A stretch of 64,000 nt of DNA from Cystobacter ferrugineus. Lineage in GTDB: Bacteria > Myxococcota > Myxococcia > Myxococcales > Myxococcaceae. Location: assembly GCF_001887355.1 (NCBI RefSeq), contig NZ_MPIN01000017.1:62001-126000 (forward strand), given 5' to 3'. The position numbers and the translations under genes were made by a program. Below the pieces are notes generated by a model, which saw only the letters and a list, made by a program, of their open reading frames with translations, was not told the DNA's origin and ran no database searches. Positions 43,053-47,901 of the stretch are shown piece after piece; the first letter of the stretch is position 1, and every line of letters starts with the position of its first letter.

Positions 43053-44909
43053 ATGAACGGGGAGAAGACAGCGCGACCACCCGCCATCGAGGACCATGGC
43101 GTGATTGGAGATCTGCGTACCGTGGCGCTGGTGGCGACCGACGGCACATTGGACTGGTTGTGCTTTCCGCACTTCGACAGCCCCACCGTCTTCGCCGCGT
43201 TGTTGGACGCGGACAAGGGCGGCCACTTCCGCATCCAGCCGGAGCACCTGCCGAACCAGCCGGAGGTGGTGCACAAGCAGTTCTACTGGCCGGACACCAA
43301 CGTGCTGGTGACTCGCTTCTACAGCGAGAACGGCGTGGGCGAGCTCGTGGACTTCATGCCCCTGGGCACCCAGGAGCCGGTGCGCATGGTGGTGCGGCGC
43401 ATCCGCGTGGTGCGCGGGGAGATGCCCTTTCGCATGGAGTGTCTGCCCGCCTTCAACTACGCGCGGGACGAGCACTCGGTGCGGGTGCTCGACCATGGGG
43501 TGAGCTTCCTGTCCCCCACGCTCAACCTGACGCTGGCCACGAAGGCGAAGCTGGAGACGGACGGCAAGCGAGTCACCTCGCGCTTCACCCTGCGCGAGGG
43601 CCAGTCCATGGTGTTCGCCCTGATCGAGGGCGCGCCCTCGTCCTGCGCCCGGCAGGCCATGGGGCACGAGTCCGCCGAGGGCCTGTTCCGCGACACGGTG
43701 GTCTACTGGCGGCACTGGCTGTCGCAGTGCACCTACCGGGGGCGCTGGCGCGAGGTGGTGTACCGCTCGGCGCTCGCGCTCAAGCTGATGACGTTCGAGC
43801 CCTCGGGGGCCATCGTGGCCTCGCCCACGTGCAGCCTGCCGGAGTCCCCTGGCGGCGGACGCAACTGGGACTACCGCTTCGTGTGGATCCGCGACGCGGC
43901 CTTCACGGTGTACGCGCTGCTGCGCATCGGGTTCTCGGACGAGGCGGGTGGGTTCATGCGCTGGTTGGAGCAGCGCATCGCGGAGCTGGGCCCGGACGAG
44001 CCGCTTCCGATCATGTTCGCGCTGGATGGCAGCAAGGTGCCCAGGGAGGAGGAGCTGTCCCATCTGGCGGGCTACCGCGACTCGCGCCCGGTGCGCATCG
44101 GCAACGAGGCGGCCAACCACCTCCAGCTCGACATCTACGGCGAGCTGATGGACGGCGTGTACCTGTACAACAAGCACGGCGCGCCCATCAGCTATGACTT
44201 CTGGAACCACCTGCGCCGGTTGACGAACTGGCTGTGCGACAACTGGCGGCGCAAGGACGAGAGCATCTGGGAGGTGCGCTCGGGGCGGCAGCACTTCGTG
44301 TACTCGAAGATGATGTGCTGGGTGGCGTTGGACCGGGCCATCCGCCTGGCCAGCAAGCGCAGCTTCCCCTCGGACCTGGCCCGGTGGATCCGCGAGCGCG
44401 ACGCCATGTTCGAGGAGATCATGGACCAGGGCTGGTGCCAGGAGCGGGGCACCTTCGTGCAATACTACGGCGCCAGGGCCCTGGACGCCTCCGTGCTGTT
44501 GATGCCGCTGGTCTTCTTCCTGTCGCCCGTGGACCCGCGCATGCTCTCCACCGTGGAGCTCATCCGCAAGCCGCCGAAGGAGGGGGGCCTCACGTCGGAC
44601 GGGCTCGTGTTCCGCTACGACACGGAGGCCAGCCAGGATGGGCTCACGGGCCGCGAGGGCACGTTCAACCTGTGCACCTTCTGGCTCGTGGAGGCCATGA
44701 CGCGCGCGAGCGTCACCCGGCCCGACTTGTTGGACGAGGCCCGGCTCCTCTTCGAGCGGATGCTCGGCTATGCCAGCCACCTGGGCCTGTTCGCCGAACA
44801 GACGGGACCGGCCGGCGAGGCACTCGGCAACTTCCCCCAGGCCCTCACCCACCTGTCGCTCATCAGCGCCGCGTACAACCTGGACCGGGCGCTCGGCGCG
44901 GGCGACTGA
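43053..44909 (+). CDS. glycoside hydrolase family 15 (glucoamylase/trehalase)
   Basis: 618 residues, cytosolic (no signal peptide). Removes glucose units from alpha-glucans or cleaves trehalose. N-terminal beta-sandwich ([28 protein letters not shown]), then the alpha/alpha barrel: [23 protein letters not shown] (substrate loop) and [21 protein letters not shown] (catalytic-acid region). The two activities cannot be told apart without a phylogeny. Confidence 0.93.
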
Positions 44910-45044: not shown

Positions 45045-45992
45045 ATGAATCCGCTGGATTGGAATGGGCCGCAGTTCCTCGCCCTGTATGGGCCGTTCCT
45101 CCTGCTCGTCCTCGTGGGGGCGCTGCTGTGGAAACGTCAGCTCAACCGGCCGGCCGGCACCCCCTCGCCCGCCGAGCTGGACATGAACCCCTATCTGGCG
45201 GCCACCCTGGAGAGTGAGGACGTGGCGGTGAAGGCGGCCGTGGTGGCGCTCGTGCACGACGGCACGCTGAAGTTCGGGGAAGAGGATGAGGAGTTGAGCG
45301 TCGCCAAGGCCCTGCCCAAGCGGGCGCTGGAGCTCGAGCGTGTCGTGCATGCCGCGGTGGCCGAGGGCAAGACGTCGCTCGTGGAGTTGCGCGAGGAGGC
45401 GCGGGCGGAGCTCTCCCGGATCGAGCAGTCCCTGCGGGCGCGGGGCTTCCTGCGCGCTCCCGAGCAGGACTCCGCCTACAGGCTCCATCCCCGGCTGCTC
45501 TTCCTCGCGGCGCTCGCGCTCGGGGTCATGAAGGTGATGGTGGGCCTGTCCCGTGGCAGGCCCGTGAGCCTCCTCGTGCTGCTGCTCCTCCTGGGAGGAG
45601 GGGTGGGGCTGGTGCTGCTGAGCGGACGCACCCGGCTCACCCCCCGGGGCCAGGAGGCGCTGAGGCTGCTGCGCAAGCGGCATGAGCCCCTGCGGACCAC
45701 CGCCACCTCGGAGGGCAGCGCCCGGACGATGAGCGCGCGCGACGTGGCCCTGGCGACGGCGCTCTTCGGGGTGGGCGGGCTCGCCCTGATCGGCGGCCAT
45801 CCCCTGCTGCGCGACTACCTGTTTCCCCCGGGCCCAGGAGGCGGGGGGGGAGGGGGTTACGGAGGGGACAGCTCGAGCGGTTCTGGCGGTAGCAGCAGTT
45901 GCGGCAGCTCGAGCAGTTGCAGCAGCTCGAGCAGTTGCAGCAGTGGGAGCAGCGGCTGTGGCGGCTGTGGGGGTGGGGGAGGCGGGGATTGA
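45045..45992 (+). CDS. TIGR04222-type membrane protein with Cys-bearing Gly/Ser tail (candidate MNIO substrate)
   Basis: 315 residues from ATG 45045. TM helices at about 11-29, 150-166, 175-194 and 235-251 enclose a soluble domain (35-148). The tail (262-315) is almost only Gly and Ser with Cys at 286, 292, 298, 305 and 308. No other cysteine exists in the protein, so the tail alone concentrates them. The stop overlaps the TTG start of the DUF692 gene. DUF692 enzymes modify cysteines in known cases. Modification of this tail is inference from layout and composition. Confidence 0.8.
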   Translation: MNPLDWNGPQFLALYGPFLLLVLVGALLWKRQLNRPAGTPSPAELDMNPYLAATLESEDVAVKAAVVALVHDGTLKFGEEDEELSVAKALPKRALELERVVHAAVAEGKTSLVELREEARAELSRIEQSLRARGFLRAPEQDSAYRLHPRLLFLAALALGVMKVMVGLSRGRPVSLLVLLLLLGGGVGLVLLSGRTRLTPRGQEALRLLRKRHEPLRTTATSEGSARTMSARDVALATALFGVGGLALIGGHPLLRDYLFPPGPGGGGGGGYGGDSSSGSGGSSSCGSSSSCSSSSSCSSGSSGCGGCGGGGGGD

Positions 45993-46819
45993 AGCGGCTC
46001 GAGGGCGTGGGACTGGGCTGGCGGCGGCAGCTCGCGCACTTCATCGACACCTGGGAGGGCCTGGGTTTCGTGGAGGTGCTGGCCGAGCAGTTGGATGAGC
46101 GGGGCGCCTTGCCCGAGCCGCTCCTCCAGCTCAAGGAGCGTGGGGTGCCGGTGGTGGTGCACGGGGTGTCGCTGGGCCTGGGTGGCGCCGAGCCTCCCTC
46201 GCCCGCGCGGCTCTCCCGGCTGGCGCGGCTGGCCGAGCGGCTGGGCGCGGTGTGCGTGAGCGAGCACCTGGCCTTCGTGCGCGCGGGGGGCCTGGAGTCC
46301 GGGCACCTGCTGCCGGTGGCGCGCCACGAGGAGTCCCTGGAGGTGCTCACGGACAATATCCGGCGGGCCGAGGCGGCGCTGCCGGTGCCCCTGGCGCTGG
46401 AGAACGTGGCGAGCCTCTTCGAGTGGCCCGAGCCCGCCTTCTGCGAGGCCGGGCTGCTCACGGGGGTGCTCGAGCGCACGGGGGCGGGGGTGCTGCTGGA
46501 CGTGGCCAACCTGTACGCCAACGCGCTCAACCTGGGCACGGATGCGCGCGCGGTGCTGGCGGCGGTGCCACGCGAGCGCCTGGCCTACGTGCACGTGGCG
46601 GGCGGGGTGCGGCACGGCGGGCTGTACCATGACACCCATGCGCACGCGGTGCCCGAGGGGCCCCTGGCCCTGCTGGAGGAGCTGACGGCGCGGGTGGGCC
46701 CGGTGCCGGCGCTGCTGGAGCGGGATGATCGCTTCCCGCCCGTGGACGAGCTCGCGGGCGAGCTGGAGGCCATGCGGGTGGCGATGGCCCGGGGCGTGGC
46801 GCGCCGGGAGGCGGCATGA
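45989..46819 (+). CDS. DUF692 multinuclear non-haem iron oxygenase (MNIO)
   Basis: 276 residues from TTG 45989, chosen because it overlaps the preceding TGA. All expected metal-ligand motifs are present: VVHGVSLG (His58), SEHLAF (Glu92-His93), LENVASL (Glu138-Asn139), LLDVANLYANALN (Asp171), VHVAGG (His202), DTHAHAV (Asp215, His217) and LLERDD (Glu244). Characterised relatives (MbnB, TglH, BufB) oxidise or rearrange Cys residues of ribosomal peptides, usually with a partner. Here the genes before and after are a Cys-tailed membrane protein and a small partner-type protein. Confidence 0.92.
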   Translation: MKRLEGVGLGWRRQLAHFIDTWEGLGFVEVLAEQLDERGALPEPLLQLKERGVPVVVHGVSLGLGGAEPPSPARLSRLARLAERLGAVCVSEHLAFVRAGGLESGHLLPVARHEESLEVLTDNIRRAEAALPVPLALENVASLFEWPEPAFCEAGLLTGVLERTGAGVLLDVANLYANALNLGTDARAVLAAVPRERLAYVHVAGGVRHGGLYHDTHAHAVPEGPLALLEELTARVGPVPALLERDDRFPPVDELAGELEAMRVAMARGVARREAA

Positions 46820-47304
46820 GCCGCGCGCGCGAGGAGCTGGCCCGCGCCCAGGCGGAGCTGATGCGCGCGCTGGAGCTGGGCGAGCCGGTGCCCGCGGGCT
46901 TCGACGCGGGACGGGTCCGGGCCACGGCCGACACGCTGCTCGCCAAGCGCCGGCGGGGGGTGCGGCGCGCGTGGCCCGTGCTCGAGCGGGCGCTCGGGGA
47001 GGCCTTCACCGGGGAGTTCGACGCCTGGGCCCGGGCGAATCCACCGCGTGCCTTCGAGCCCCACGCGGGCGTGGAGGGCTACCGCTTCGCCCTGGCCCTG
47101 CACGCGAAGGGACGTCTTCCCCGCGAGGCGGAGGCGGAGGTGCTCGGCTTCGGGGTTCGCTGGCGGATCACCACCACGGGCGGACTGGCCCCGCGCCGGG
47201 GGCTCGTCTTCCGGATGCTGCGCATGGGGGAGCAGCGGCGCTGGAGGTGGGCGGTGCGGCTGCCCGGAGGGCGCGTGCTCCGGGGGCGGCTACCCGGCGG
47301 GTGA
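46816..47304 (+). CDS. partner protein of the MNIO (SCO6045-like/DUF2063-like)
   Basis: 162 residues, starting within the stop of the MNIO gene (ATGA). The N-terminal 80 or so residues are helical and follow the pattern P-x-G-F-D ... LLxKR ... WPxLERALG-x-x-F, seen in small proteins encoded beside DUF692 genes. The C-terminal half is a basic, Arg/Trp-rich region. Likely delivers or recognises the substrate tail, as MNIO partners do elsewhere. Overlaps the convergent TetR gene by 15 bp. Confidence 0.6.
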   Translation: MSRAREELARAQAELMRALELGEPVPAGFDAGRVRATADTLLAKRRRGVRRAWPVLERALGEAFTGEFDAWARANPPRAFEPHAGVEGYRFALALHAKGRLPREAEAEVLGFGVRWRITTTGGLAPRRGLVFRMLRMGEQRRWRWAVRLPGGRVLRGRLPGG

Positions 47305-47901
47305 GGCCTGGCCCGGCGGCGCCATGCCCCGCCAGAGCATGTTGAGCAGGCGCTCCACGAACGGATCCTCCTCCTCCGTGGGGACGCGCTGCTGCGTGAT
47401 GTGGGCGAGGAAGTAGCGGTACTGCACCCCCGCCATGAAGAGGCCGGCCATGAGGCTGGGGTCTCCCTCGCGCAGCAGGCCCCGCTCCTGGGCCCGCTTG
47501 AACCAGGCCGTCATCGAGTCCTGGGCCCGCGCCGCCGGAGAGTCCTCCGAGTCTCCCCGGATTTCCTCGGGTGTGAGGCCCGCCTCGCGCAGCACCGAGA
47601 AGGCCGGCACCATCTTGCGGAAGAAGGCATCGATGGTGAGGGCCAGCTCGCGGAGCTGCACGGAGATGTCCCGATCATCCGGCCCCTCCTCCACCATGGG
47701 CAGCCACGGGGGAGGACTCCCCACCGCGAAGGCCGCCTTGAGCAGCTCCCGCTTGCTGCCGAAGCGCTTGAGCAGTGCCGGACCGGAGACGCCCAGGCGC
47801 GCCGCGATCGTCTCCGTGCTCACGGACGACCCGTGCTCGATGAAGCAGGCCCGTGCCGCTTCCAGAATCTCCTCGTCCAGGACCTGTCGGGGACGCCCCA
47901 T
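47290..47901 (-). CDS. TetR-family transcriptional regulator
   Basis: 203 residues. N-terminal HTH at about 10-56 (EAARACFIEHGSSVSTETIAARLGVSGPALLKRFGSKRELLKAAF), then a helical ligand-binding domain. Start ATG 47901. An inverted repeat at 47921-47936 lies 20 bases before the start, a good autoregulatory operator. Its target genes are not obvious: the MNIO set is convergent with it and the nearest divergent gene starts 540 bp away. Confidence 0.92.
   Translation of the reverse strand: MGRPRQVLDEEILEAARACFIEHGSSVSTETIAARLGVSGPALLKRFGSKRELLKAAFAVGSPPPWLPMVEEGPDDRDISVQLRELALTIDAFFRKMVPAFSVLREAGLTPEEIRGDSEDSPAARAQDSMTAWFKRAQERGLLREGDPSLMAGLFMAGVQYRYFLAHITQQRVPTEEEDPFVERLLNMLWRGMAPPGQASPAG

What the first reader, a model, noticed from the sequence alone, without database searches (positions are those of the whole stretch)
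45045..47304. Cys-tailed membrane protein + MNIO (DUF692) + partner: candidate membrane-anchored peptide-modification system
Three genes overlap start-to-stop. The membrane protein has no Cys in its first 285 residues but five in its Gly/Ser tail (286, 292, 298, 305, 308; spacing 6, 6, 7, 3). The next gene encodes a DUF692 enzyme with all metal-ligand motifs, a family that modifies Cys in MbnA, TglA-bound and bufferin peptides. The third resembles a substrate partner. This suggests a modified, metal-binding or redox-active tail fixed to a membrane protein instead of a cleaved peptide.
Basis: partly seen in the sequence, partly recalled or inferred. Interest (0 to 1): 0.82.

Follow-up and report, generated by a model that had tools for sequence, protein, structure and literature searches.

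The report
Membrane protein with enzyme-modified cysteine tail
A soil bacterium carries three overlapping genes that probably make a membrane protein whose cysteine-studded tail is chemically altered by an iron enzyme and its helper; this kind of gene set was already predicted in print in 2025, and no test of it was found.

Summary
Window 45045-47304 holds three start-to-stop overlapping genes: a TIGR04222 membrane protein with no Cys before residue 286 and five in its Gly/Ser tail, an MNIO (DUF692) enzyme, and a small third protein. The set TIGR04222 + MNIO + "PME-type 2" partner, with the Cys tail as possible substrate, is a published prediction (PMC12452194); no experimental test was found. 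This is a new member of a known kind.

New tests here. The third protein's predicted fold best matches the known MNIO partners TglI, NGO1945 and MbnC. Its family occurs in 87 of 88 MNIO-linked actinobacterial loci and 0 of 52 unlinked ones, and is fused to the MNIO in 17. Two genomes carry MNIO and partner at different TIGR04222 loci. In 109 actinobacterial genomes, Cys tails occur in 79 of 94 with a cognate MNIO and 0 of 15 without.

Against: two Myxococcota genomes have Cys tails without a cognate MNIO, 13 Streptomycetaceae MNIO loci hold only tailless TIGR04222, and the linkage is weak after phylogenetic pairing (7:1 of 25, p=0.07). The 6-6-7-3 spacing is not conserved; in Myxococcota only the terminal CGGC is. 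Chemistry, tail side and function are inferred.

The parts
45045..45992 (+). TIGR04222 membrane protein (315 aa), probable substrate; hydrophobic helices about 8-33, 139-169, 175-192, and a marginal one at 231-252
   Evidence: NCBIfam TIGR04222 132 bits; hydropathy; AlphaFold2 helices. A fifth segment flagged by plain hydropathy at 52-70 was not counted: it scores unfavourably in all 24 proteins
45825..45989 (+). Gly/Ser/Cys tail (residues 261-315), Cys at 286, 292, 298, 305, 308; terminal CGGC, Gly run, Asp; predicted disordered
   Evidence: translation; pLDDT below 50 over most of 266-315; CGGC within last 12 residues in 40 of 44 Myxococcota frames
45989..46819 (+). MNIO (DUF692, PF05114) enzyme, TTG start overlapping the stop of gene 1
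   Evidence: 252 bits; ten putative ligand/base positions unchanged in 245 MNIO frames apart from one gapped row (duplicates of a place not removed); alignment to 3BWW, TglH, MbnB
46816..47304 (+). MNIO partner protein (162 aa): N-terminal helical DUF2063-like domain plus C-terminal strand domain; ATG overlaps the stop of gene 2
   Evidence: AlphaFold2 pLDDT 93.3; best matches TglI, NGO1945, MbnC; 4 of 36 family members match DUF2063, best E 2.9e-6
43053..44909 (+). Flanking gene, not shown to be part of the system: GH15 / trehalase-like glycoside hydrolase, kept upstream in close relatives
   Evidence: Pfam PF00723; tblastn hits in 11 loci, which stand for the own genome and 6 others
47290..47901 (-). 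Flanking gene, not shown to be part of the system: TetR-family regulator facing the operon
   Evidence: Pfam PF00440; besides the own place, found only in L042 (most fetched loci do not reach this far downstream)

Best explanation
A dedicated modification cassette for one membrane protein. SHOWN by sequence and model: the three genes are coupled start-to-stop; gene 2 is an MNIO with the expected ligand positions intact; gene 3 has the fold of MNIO partners; the partner family travels with the TIGR04222-linked MNIO clade; in Actinomycetota, Cys tails were seen only in genomes with that MNIO. INFERRED: partner and MNIO form a complex in the cytosol that oxidises tail cysteines, most of which precede Gly, probably to 5-thiooxazole or a related Cys-derived group as in other MNIO systems. 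The C-terminal tail, the last part translated, would be modified before the last, marginally hydrophobic helix inserts and places the tail outside. The product would be a membrane-tethered, soft-metal-binding (perhaps copper-buffering) brush, not a released peptide. The MNIO and partner presumably also act in trans on other Cys-tailed copies in the same genome.
For: Family assignments. Ten putative ligand/base positions conserved. Partner fold: TglI 8hi7 Z 7.0 (148 aligned, rmsd 4.6) and 8hci Z 6.9, NGO1945 3dee Z 6.5, MbnC 7dz9_C Z 6.0, then 4.9 for an unrelated protein; DUF2063 sequence matches in 4 of 36 family members. Partner family in 35 of 36 and 52 of 52 MNIO-linked loci of two actinobacterial samples and 0 of 15 and 0 of 37 unlinked ones; in one open frame with the MNIO in 17 of the 52 linked Streptomycetaceae loci. 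Split system: in G063 and G066 the clade MNIO sits at one TIGR04222 locus without partner, and the only partner gene found sits at the second TIGR04222 locus without MNIO. Genome level: tail with two or more Cys in 79 of 94 genomes with a clade MNIO and 0 of 15 without; Fisher p 1.5e-10, not corrected for descent. Same-genome pairs: in 6 of 8 genomes holding both kinds, the MNIO-linked copies have 4-6 tail Cys and the unlinked copy none. Gly follows 139 of the 172 Myxococcota tail Cys counted and 485 of 613 actinobacterial ones; the MNIO FonB prefers Cys-Gly (PMC13097082, section 13 read). The last helix is more hydrophobic in Cys-tailed than in other TIGR04222 proteins (p 6e-5 and 2e-7 in the two actinobacterial samples, 0.03 in Myxococcota with only 2 others). 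Precedent: an MNIO subfamily recognises a C-terminal motif and modifies C-termini of proteins above 30 kDa (PMC12636315, abstract read).
Against: No direct evidence of modification. Tail state largely follows subfamily: of 25 phylogenetically independent contrasts, 17 do not differ in Cys state, 7 go the predicted way and 1 the other (p 0.07). In 13 of 52 MNIO-linked Streptomycetaceae loci the TIGR04222 proteins have no Cys tail and no other Gly/Ser/Cys-rich gene-like frame was found near, although those MNIOs keep all ligands. In Myxococcota, G056 (98% complete) has a Cys tail but no MNIO match at E<=1e-10, and G163 (whose TIGR04222 frame has a stop inside) has only a distant MNIO (35%) and no partner. 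In 2 of 8 genomes an unlinked copy keeps its Cys tail. The last helix is only marginally hydrophobic (median 0.29, below 0 in 46% of 24 proteins), so the tail side is uncertain. The terminal Gly run and Asp also encode the start and probably the ribosome-binding site of the MNIO gene, which may explain part of their conservation, though an unlinked copy keeps the same end.
Confidence: 0.66

Rival explanations
1. Membrane protein as leader: the tail is modified and then cut off, so the TIGR04222 body serves as a membrane-bound leader and the product is a released metallophore-like peptide.
For: Many established MNIO products are peptides (abstracts of PMC12452194 and PMC13097082 read). The tail is predicted disordered and distinct from the folded body.
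Against: The overlapping operon holds three genes and none looks like a protease. No shared cleavage-like motif stands out at the body-tail boundary in the printed tails (by eye only).
Confidence: 0.17
2. The Cys tail works unmodified as a thiol brush (metal or redox), and the MNIO acts on something else; tail and MNIO are linked only as parts of one stress response.
For: Cys tails without a cognate MNIO in G056 and G163; MNIO plus partner beside tailless TIGR04222 in 13 of 52 linked Streptomycetaceae loci.
Against: 0 of 15 sampled actinobacterial genomes without a clade MNIO have a Cys tail, and the 4 genomes with a Cys tail but no MNIO near a fetched copy have a clade MNIO elsewhere, in three of them beside a TIGR04222 copy that was not fetched. 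The window operon offers no other Cys-rich candidate.
Confidence: 0.13
3. Cytoplasmic tail: the protein has three membrane helices, so the tail stays inside, where the MNIO can reach it, and serves as a cytosolic metal store or sensor. (This rival is about the side of the tail and can be true together with modification.)
For: The fourth helix is short (231-246 in the model) and only marginally hydrophobic. The strongly basic stretch 193-232 before it fits a cytoplasmic side.
Against: The tail has few Lys/Arg (3.0 per 100 against 19.8 in 193-232). The helix is clearly more hydrophobic in Cys-tailed than in other paralogues. Published models also place the tail outside (PMC12452194, section 16 read).
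Confidence: 0.2
4. Low-complexity drift: the Gly/Ser/Cys tail is a GC-rich repeat without function, Cys arising by single changes from Ser/Gly codons.
For: Tail length and upstream Cys number vary widely.
Against: Terminal CGGC in 40 of 44 Myxococcota frames; Cys-to-Cys spacing peaks at 6 in Actinomycetota, 166 of 498 spacings; strong tie to MNIO presence at genome level.
Confidence: 0.03

Closest known systems
TIGR04222-MNIO gene clusters with PME-type 2 partners (Antoine et al. 2025, PMC12452194; abstract, TIGR04222 passages, sections 16 and 18 read)
   Same: Same three components. The paper also proposes that C-terminal Cys-rich segments, predicted outside, may be MNIO-modified on a membrane protein.
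   Different: The paper predicts partners in 'at least 10%' of TIGR04222 clusters and says many TIGR04222 + MNIO clusters appear to lack one. Here the partner family is found in 87 of 88 MNIO-linked loci of two actinobacterial samples. The paper's percentage also counts clusters without MNIO.
Captophorins / bufferins / oxazolin (MNIO + PME-type 1; PMC13097082, abstract and sections 7, 13, 14 read)
   Same: P0002 shares the Arg-Arg near the N-terminus and the ERD motif with 3BWW, a member of that group; the partner has a helical plus a strand part; Cys-Gly target context. Across the TIGR04222-linked MNIOs the second Arg is usually Pro (134 of 232).
   Different: Those precursors are peptides, most MNIO precursors with Sec signal peptides (PMC12452194 abstract), and the partner is a DUF2063 protein. 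Here the candidate substrate is a multi-helix membrane protein and P0003 has no DUF2063 hit.
ChrH-like MNIOs that modify C-termini, including proteins above 30 kDa and lipidated peptides (PMC12636315, abstract only)
   Same: C-terminal modification of a larger protein by an MNIO, and membrane-anchored products, here by lipid.
   Different: Different MNIO subfamily (P0002 scores 51.8 bits against a ChrH cut-off of 600); anchoring is by diacylglycerol, not by membrane helices.
TglA-TglHI (3-thiaglutamate)
   Same: Partner fold closest to TglI (Z 7.0); MNIO aligns to TglH.
   Different: TglHI acts on a Cys added to the end of a scaffold peptide (abstracts seen in the listing); no membrane protein.
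MbnABC (methanobactin)
   Same: Partner fold also matches MbnC (Z 6.0); MNIO ligands align with MbnB.
   Different: Short free peptide substrate (recalled); distant enzyme (38 bits to the MbnB model, cut-off 325).
DUF2207 C-terminal domain proteins
   Same: Weak sub-threshold match to the body of gene 1 (23.1 bits, cut-off 33).
   Different: Below cut-off; no MNIO link known to me.

Membership tests
TIGR04222 domain membrane proteins | Score over the curated NCBIfam cut-off across the whole domain | tested here: met
   132.1 bits against 43, profile 1-229 of 229
TIGR04222 domain membrane proteins | C-terminal Gly/Ser tail with Cys (the subset linked to MNIO in print) | tested here: met
   five Cys in residues 286-308
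MNIO (DUF692, PF05114) | Score over Pfam gathering cut-off | tested here: met
   252.5 bits against 25
MNIO (DUF692, PF05114) | Conserved metal ligands and catalytic base | tested here: met
   positions lined up with 3BWW, TglH and MbnB; H58 H93 E138 D171 N174 H202 D215 H217 E244 D246 unchanged in 245 frames apart from one gapped row. That these are the ligands is recalled; the base is inferred from FonB-Asp249 (PMC13097082)
MNIO (DUF692, PF05114) | Iron-dependent oxidation of a peptide or protein substrate | not testable with these tools
   needs enzyme and mass spectrometry
Bufferin maturase BufB / HvfB | Score over the NCBIfam equivalog cut-off | tested here: not met
   192.4 against 310 (MNIO_BufB) and 154.9 against 360 (HvfB)
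MNIO partner proteins (PME-type 2) | Fold like NGO1945/TglI without the DUF2063 Pfam signature | tested here: met
   no Pfam hit for P0003; VIA-align Z 7.0/6.9 TglI, 6.5 NGO1945, 6.0 MbnC, next 4.9. Z under 8 alone is not proof; Foldseek E 0.08 (MbnC) and 0.77 (NGO1945) are weak
MNIO partner proteins (PME-type 2) | Gene follows or is fused to the MNIO gene | tested here: met
   overlap at 46816; one open frame with the MNIO in 17 of 52 linked Streptomycetaceae loci
[quoted passage not shown]
   P0003 itself has no hit; 4 of 36 family members match at E<=0.1, best 2.9e-6
Captophorin (5-thiooxazole) class | 5-thiooxazole in the product | not testable with these tools
   needs mass spectrometry, UV and NMR
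Captophorin (5-thiooxazole) class | DUF2282, Lys-Cys or Cys-Lys precursor with PME1 partner | tested here: not met
   the tail has no Lys-Cys or Cys-Lys, gene 1 has no DUF2282 hit and P0003 no DUF2063 hit

The most novel reading that the evidence does not exclude
A protein-scale, helix-anchored counterpart of the thiooxazole metallophores: an iron enzyme and partner decorate arrays of Cys (commonest spacing six in Actinomycetota, ending in CGGC in Myxococcota) on an integral membrane protein, making a permanent metal-binding brush on the cell surface, served in trans by one MNIO-partner pair per genome.
Probability: 0.4. Interest if true: 0.62.

Novelty: new member of a known kind. Interest (0 to 1): 0.4.

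Why it matters
If the tail is modified, MNIO chemistry reaches integral membrane proteins, and bacteria can hold a metal-binding modified amino acid array fixed in their membrane. The system is compact (three genes), has a clear test by mass spectrometry, and the tie of enzyme, partner and Cys tail found here makes the published guess sharper. Against this, the idea is already in print (PMC12452194), and MNIO modification of large proteins and of lipid-anchored peptides has been reported for another subfamily (PMC12636315, abstract).

Tried and rejected
Sequence-only search of the partner alignment A2 against PDB sequences gave nothing up to E 10; structure comparison was needed. Fold search of the TIGR04222 model gave no meaningful PDB match (best E 1.8). 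A first partner HMM iteration drifted onto the MNIO because it merged fused domains; its partner counts were discarded and the search redone with single domains; the list headed 'MNIO no partner' also names loci that hold no MNIO and was not used. A neighbourhood clustering of long frames was dominated by antisense frames in GC-rich DNA and was not used. A 296-genome actinobacterial sample gave only 11 genomes over the cut-off and was replaced by two denser samples. The linkage of Cys tail and nearby MNIO in Streptomycetaceae is weak at gene level (p 0.028) and 7:1 among the 8 differing of 25 contrasts overall; I therefore rest more on genome-level presence, which is not corrected for descent. 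Low-complexity drift was judged unlikely because of the terminal CGGC and the MNIO tie.

Literature: 'TIGR04222' occurs in 2 papers of the held library; PMC12452194 was read in part, PMC5183585 was seen only in the listing. No experimental test of a TIGR04222 protein was found; some of these lists were capped (one search shows 20 of 59, one search shows 20 of 70,339), and most subscription papers are not in that library.

Rows left out and limits: L007 and L028 (places also held as L001 and L042) in the Myxococcota tail counts, in which broken or cut frames (L043, L045, L046) were kept. In one search, 250 of 254 MNIO frames were aligned, 5 from the own genome were shown apart, and repeated places were not removed. 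In the contrasts, fragments under 150 profile positions, L028 and the short versions of refetched loci were left out. Streptomycetaceae loci cover 67 of the 78 genomes with a match, and some low-scoring copies were not fetched, among them copies in four genomes counted as 'MNIO, no Cys tail' (G360, G381, G445, G657), so 79 of 94 is a lower bound. A Cys tail means two or more Cys after the matched domain; one of the 15 genomes without clade MNIO (G545) has one Cys. Two of the 15 (G630, G631) have a distant MNIO (39 and 36%). Completeness of those genomes is not told. In one search only 150 candidates were scored in most genomes.
Full report
WHAT IS THERE. The three genes are real and placed as stated. 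Gene 1 (45045-45992) is a TIGR04222 membrane protein whose only five cysteines lie at 286, 292, 298, 305 and 308 of 315. Gene 2 (45989-46819) is an MNIO (PF05114) that begins at a TTG inside the stop of gene 1. Gene 3 (46816-47304) begins at an ATG inside the stop of gene 2. Upstream is a GH15/trehalase-like gene, downstream a TetR regulator on the other strand. The GATTGA junction is kept in the 8 relatives printed, and the GH15 neighbour is found in 6 other genomes. Nine loci found by a named scan are myxobacterial (Archangium, Pyxidicoccus, Hyalangium, Myxococcus).

PRIOR ART. TIGR04222 proteins were described in 2025 as putative MNIO substrates: more than 3,500 proteins, Ser/Gly-rich C-termini with Cys predicted outside, partners of 'PME-type 2', and the statement that nature and role of the modification remain to be investigated (PMC12452194: abstract, TIGR04222 passages, sections 16 and 18 read). 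A preprint on another MNIO subfamily reports C-terminal modification of proteins above 30 kDa and lipid-anchored products (PMC12636315, abstract only); this makes MNIO action on a protein tail more plausible and less novel. I found no experimental test of a TIGR04222 protein (some with capped lists).

THE ENZYME. P0002 aligns to the solved MNIOs 3BWW, TglH and MbnB. In 245 MNIO frames from the loci gathered here (232 + 13; repeated places not removed; five other MNIOs of the own genome shown apart), the positions H58, H93, E138, D171, N174, H202, D215, H217, E244 and D246 are unchanged apart from one gapped row. D246 lies in the ERD motif that corresponds, by my inference, to the FonB base Asp249 (PMC13097082, section 14). 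P0002 scores below the equivalog cut-offs of BufB and HvfB, so it is related to the bufferin maturases but not filed as one of them.

THE THIRD GENE. P0003 has no family hit. Its model (36 sequences, mean pLDDT 93.3) has six N-terminal helices and a C-terminal strand part. Foldseek's best hit was MbnC and its third NGO1945, both weak (E 0.08 and 0.77). VIA-align ranks TglI (Z 7.0 and 6.9), NGO1945 (6.5) and MbnC (6.0) above everything else it compared (next 4.9): the top four rows are three known MNIO partners. Z under 8 alone is not proof, but 4 of 36 family members also hit DUF2063 by sequence (best E 2.9e-6). Genome context agrees: the family is in 35 of 36 MNIO-linked Pseudonocardiales loci, 52 of 52 in Streptomycetaceae, 26 of 28 in Myxococcota and 77 of 80 loci of the MNIO scan, but in 0 of 52 unlinked actinobacterial loci. 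In 17 of the 52 Streptomycetaceae loci it lies in one open frame with the MNIO. This goes further than the 'at least 10%' of the 2025 paper, whose denominator also holds clusters without MNIO.

A SPLIT SYSTEM. The two Myxococcota MNIO loci without partner (L038 in G063, L039 in G066) belong to genomes whose only partner gene found lies at their second TIGR04222 locus, which has no MNIO within the 13.7 kb read (L344, L345). Whole-genome searches found one MNIO of this clade (77-78% identity; the others 36% or less) and one partner in each genome (in one search 150 of about 400 candidates were scored). These two genomes are of one genus, so this is probably one event. It suggests that enzyme and partner work together and reach both tails in trans. 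The window's own genome likewise has a second Cys-tailed TIGR04222 (G000 C5, tail ending CGGCGGGGD) without MNIO or partner within 13.7 kb, while one clade MNIO and one partner were found in the genome.

THE TAIL. Of 44 Myxococcota TIGR04222 frames, 40 have two or more tail Cys, 40 have CGGC in the last 12 residues, and 26 end in CGGC, Gly run, Asp. The upstream Cys vary in number and spacing. In Actinomycetota the terminal motif is not the rule (tails); spacing six is commonest (166 of 498). Cys is mostly followed by Gly (139 of 172 in Myxococcota; 485 of 613 in Actinomycetota), the context preferred by FonB (PMC13097082, section 13). A caution: the terminal Gly run and Asp codon overlap the start and probable ribosome-binding site of the MNIO gene, though the unlinked copy in the same genome keeps the same end.

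DOES THE TAIL GO WITH THE ENZYME? Locus level: in Pseudonocardiales all 36 MNIO-linked loci hold a TIGR04222 frame with two or more tail Cys, against 3 of 15 unlinked; in Streptomycetaceae 39 of 52 against 13 of 37. Same-genome pairs: in 6 of 8 genomes with both kinds the linked copies have 4-6 tail Cys and the unlinked copy none; five of these six look like one orthologous pair, so independent cases are few, and in the other 2 an unlinked copy keeps Cys. Genome level: of 109 sampled genomes, 94 have an MNIO of the clade (near a fetched locus, or at 50% identity or more elsewhere) and 79 of these have a Cys tail; 15 have none of the clade, and 0 of these have a Cys tail (Fisher p 1.5e-10, not corrected for descent). 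Each of the 15 has a single TIGR04222 match. Against: of 25 independent contrasts on a tree of 225 frames, 10 pairs both have Cys, 7 both lack it, 7 go as predicted and 1 the other way (p 0.07). Thirteen of 52 MNIO-linked Streptomycetaceae loci have only tailless TIGR04222, 11 of them with the fused MNIO-partner frame; a scan for Gly/Ser-rich frames with three or more Cys near them gave one hit, antisense to an MNIO. Of 12 Myxococcota genomes checked for the enzyme (chosen mostly because they hold unlinked copies), G056 has a Cys tail and no MNIO at E<=1e-10, and G163 only a distant one. So Cys tail and MNIO go together strongly but not absolutely.

TOPOLOGY. Helices 8-33, 139-169 and 175-192 are clear. 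The last one (231-246 in the model) is marginal (median 0.29 on a scale recalled from memory), yet it is more hydrophobic in Cys-tailed proteins than in others in all three groups (Myxococcota 37 against 2, Pseudonocardiales 54 against 21, Streptomycetaceae 54 against 56). With positive charges at 193-232 and few in the tail this favours four helices and an outside tail, as the 2025 paper proposed, but the folded part at 30-140 looks cytoplasmic by charge, where that paper speaks of large periplasmic domains. An inside tail is not excluded.

VERDICT. The best-supported account is MNIO-plus-partner modification of a membrane-tethered Cys tail, presumably also in trans. Chemistry, side and function are inferred.

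Noticed in passing
L257, L260, L264, L265, L266, L268, L271, L256, L302, L284, L270, L274, L285 (Streptomycetaceae): MNIO loci that hold only a tailless TIGR04222 protein; in 11 of 13 the MNIO is in one open frame with the partner. No Cys-rich substrate found nearby; the true substrate is unknown.
   Followed up: partly
G063 (L038, L344) and G066 (L039, L345): MNIO and its partner are split between two TIGR04222 loci in the same genome, each locus lacking the other half.
   Followed up: yes
window's own genome, G000 C5:605665-606354 (L002, L343), outside the window: A second Cys-tailed TIGR04222 copy without MNIO or partner nearby, still ending in the GATTGA that starts the MNIO gene elsewhere.
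   Followed up: partly
L042 (G093 C1:603309-618001): A run of four TIGR04222 genes before one MNIO and one partner; one of the four has no Cys tail.
   Followed up: no
L346 (G056) and L043 (G163): Cys-rich CGGG-type tails in genomes without a cognate MNIO, so some Cys tails may work without it or with another enzyme.
   Followed up: partly
window's own genome: L003, L004, L005, L006, L008: Five further MNIO genes outside the window, four of them 34-38% identical to P0002; L008 is divergent with two altered ligand positions.
   Followed up: partly
G115 C181:16370-17664: Clade MNIO and partner on a contig without a TIGR04222 match over the cut-off, while two TIGR04222 copies lie on a short contig (C405); may be an assembly break.
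   Followed up: no
window 43053-44909: GH15/trehalase-like gene kept directly upstream of the operon in close relatives; a functional link is unclear.
   Followed up: partly
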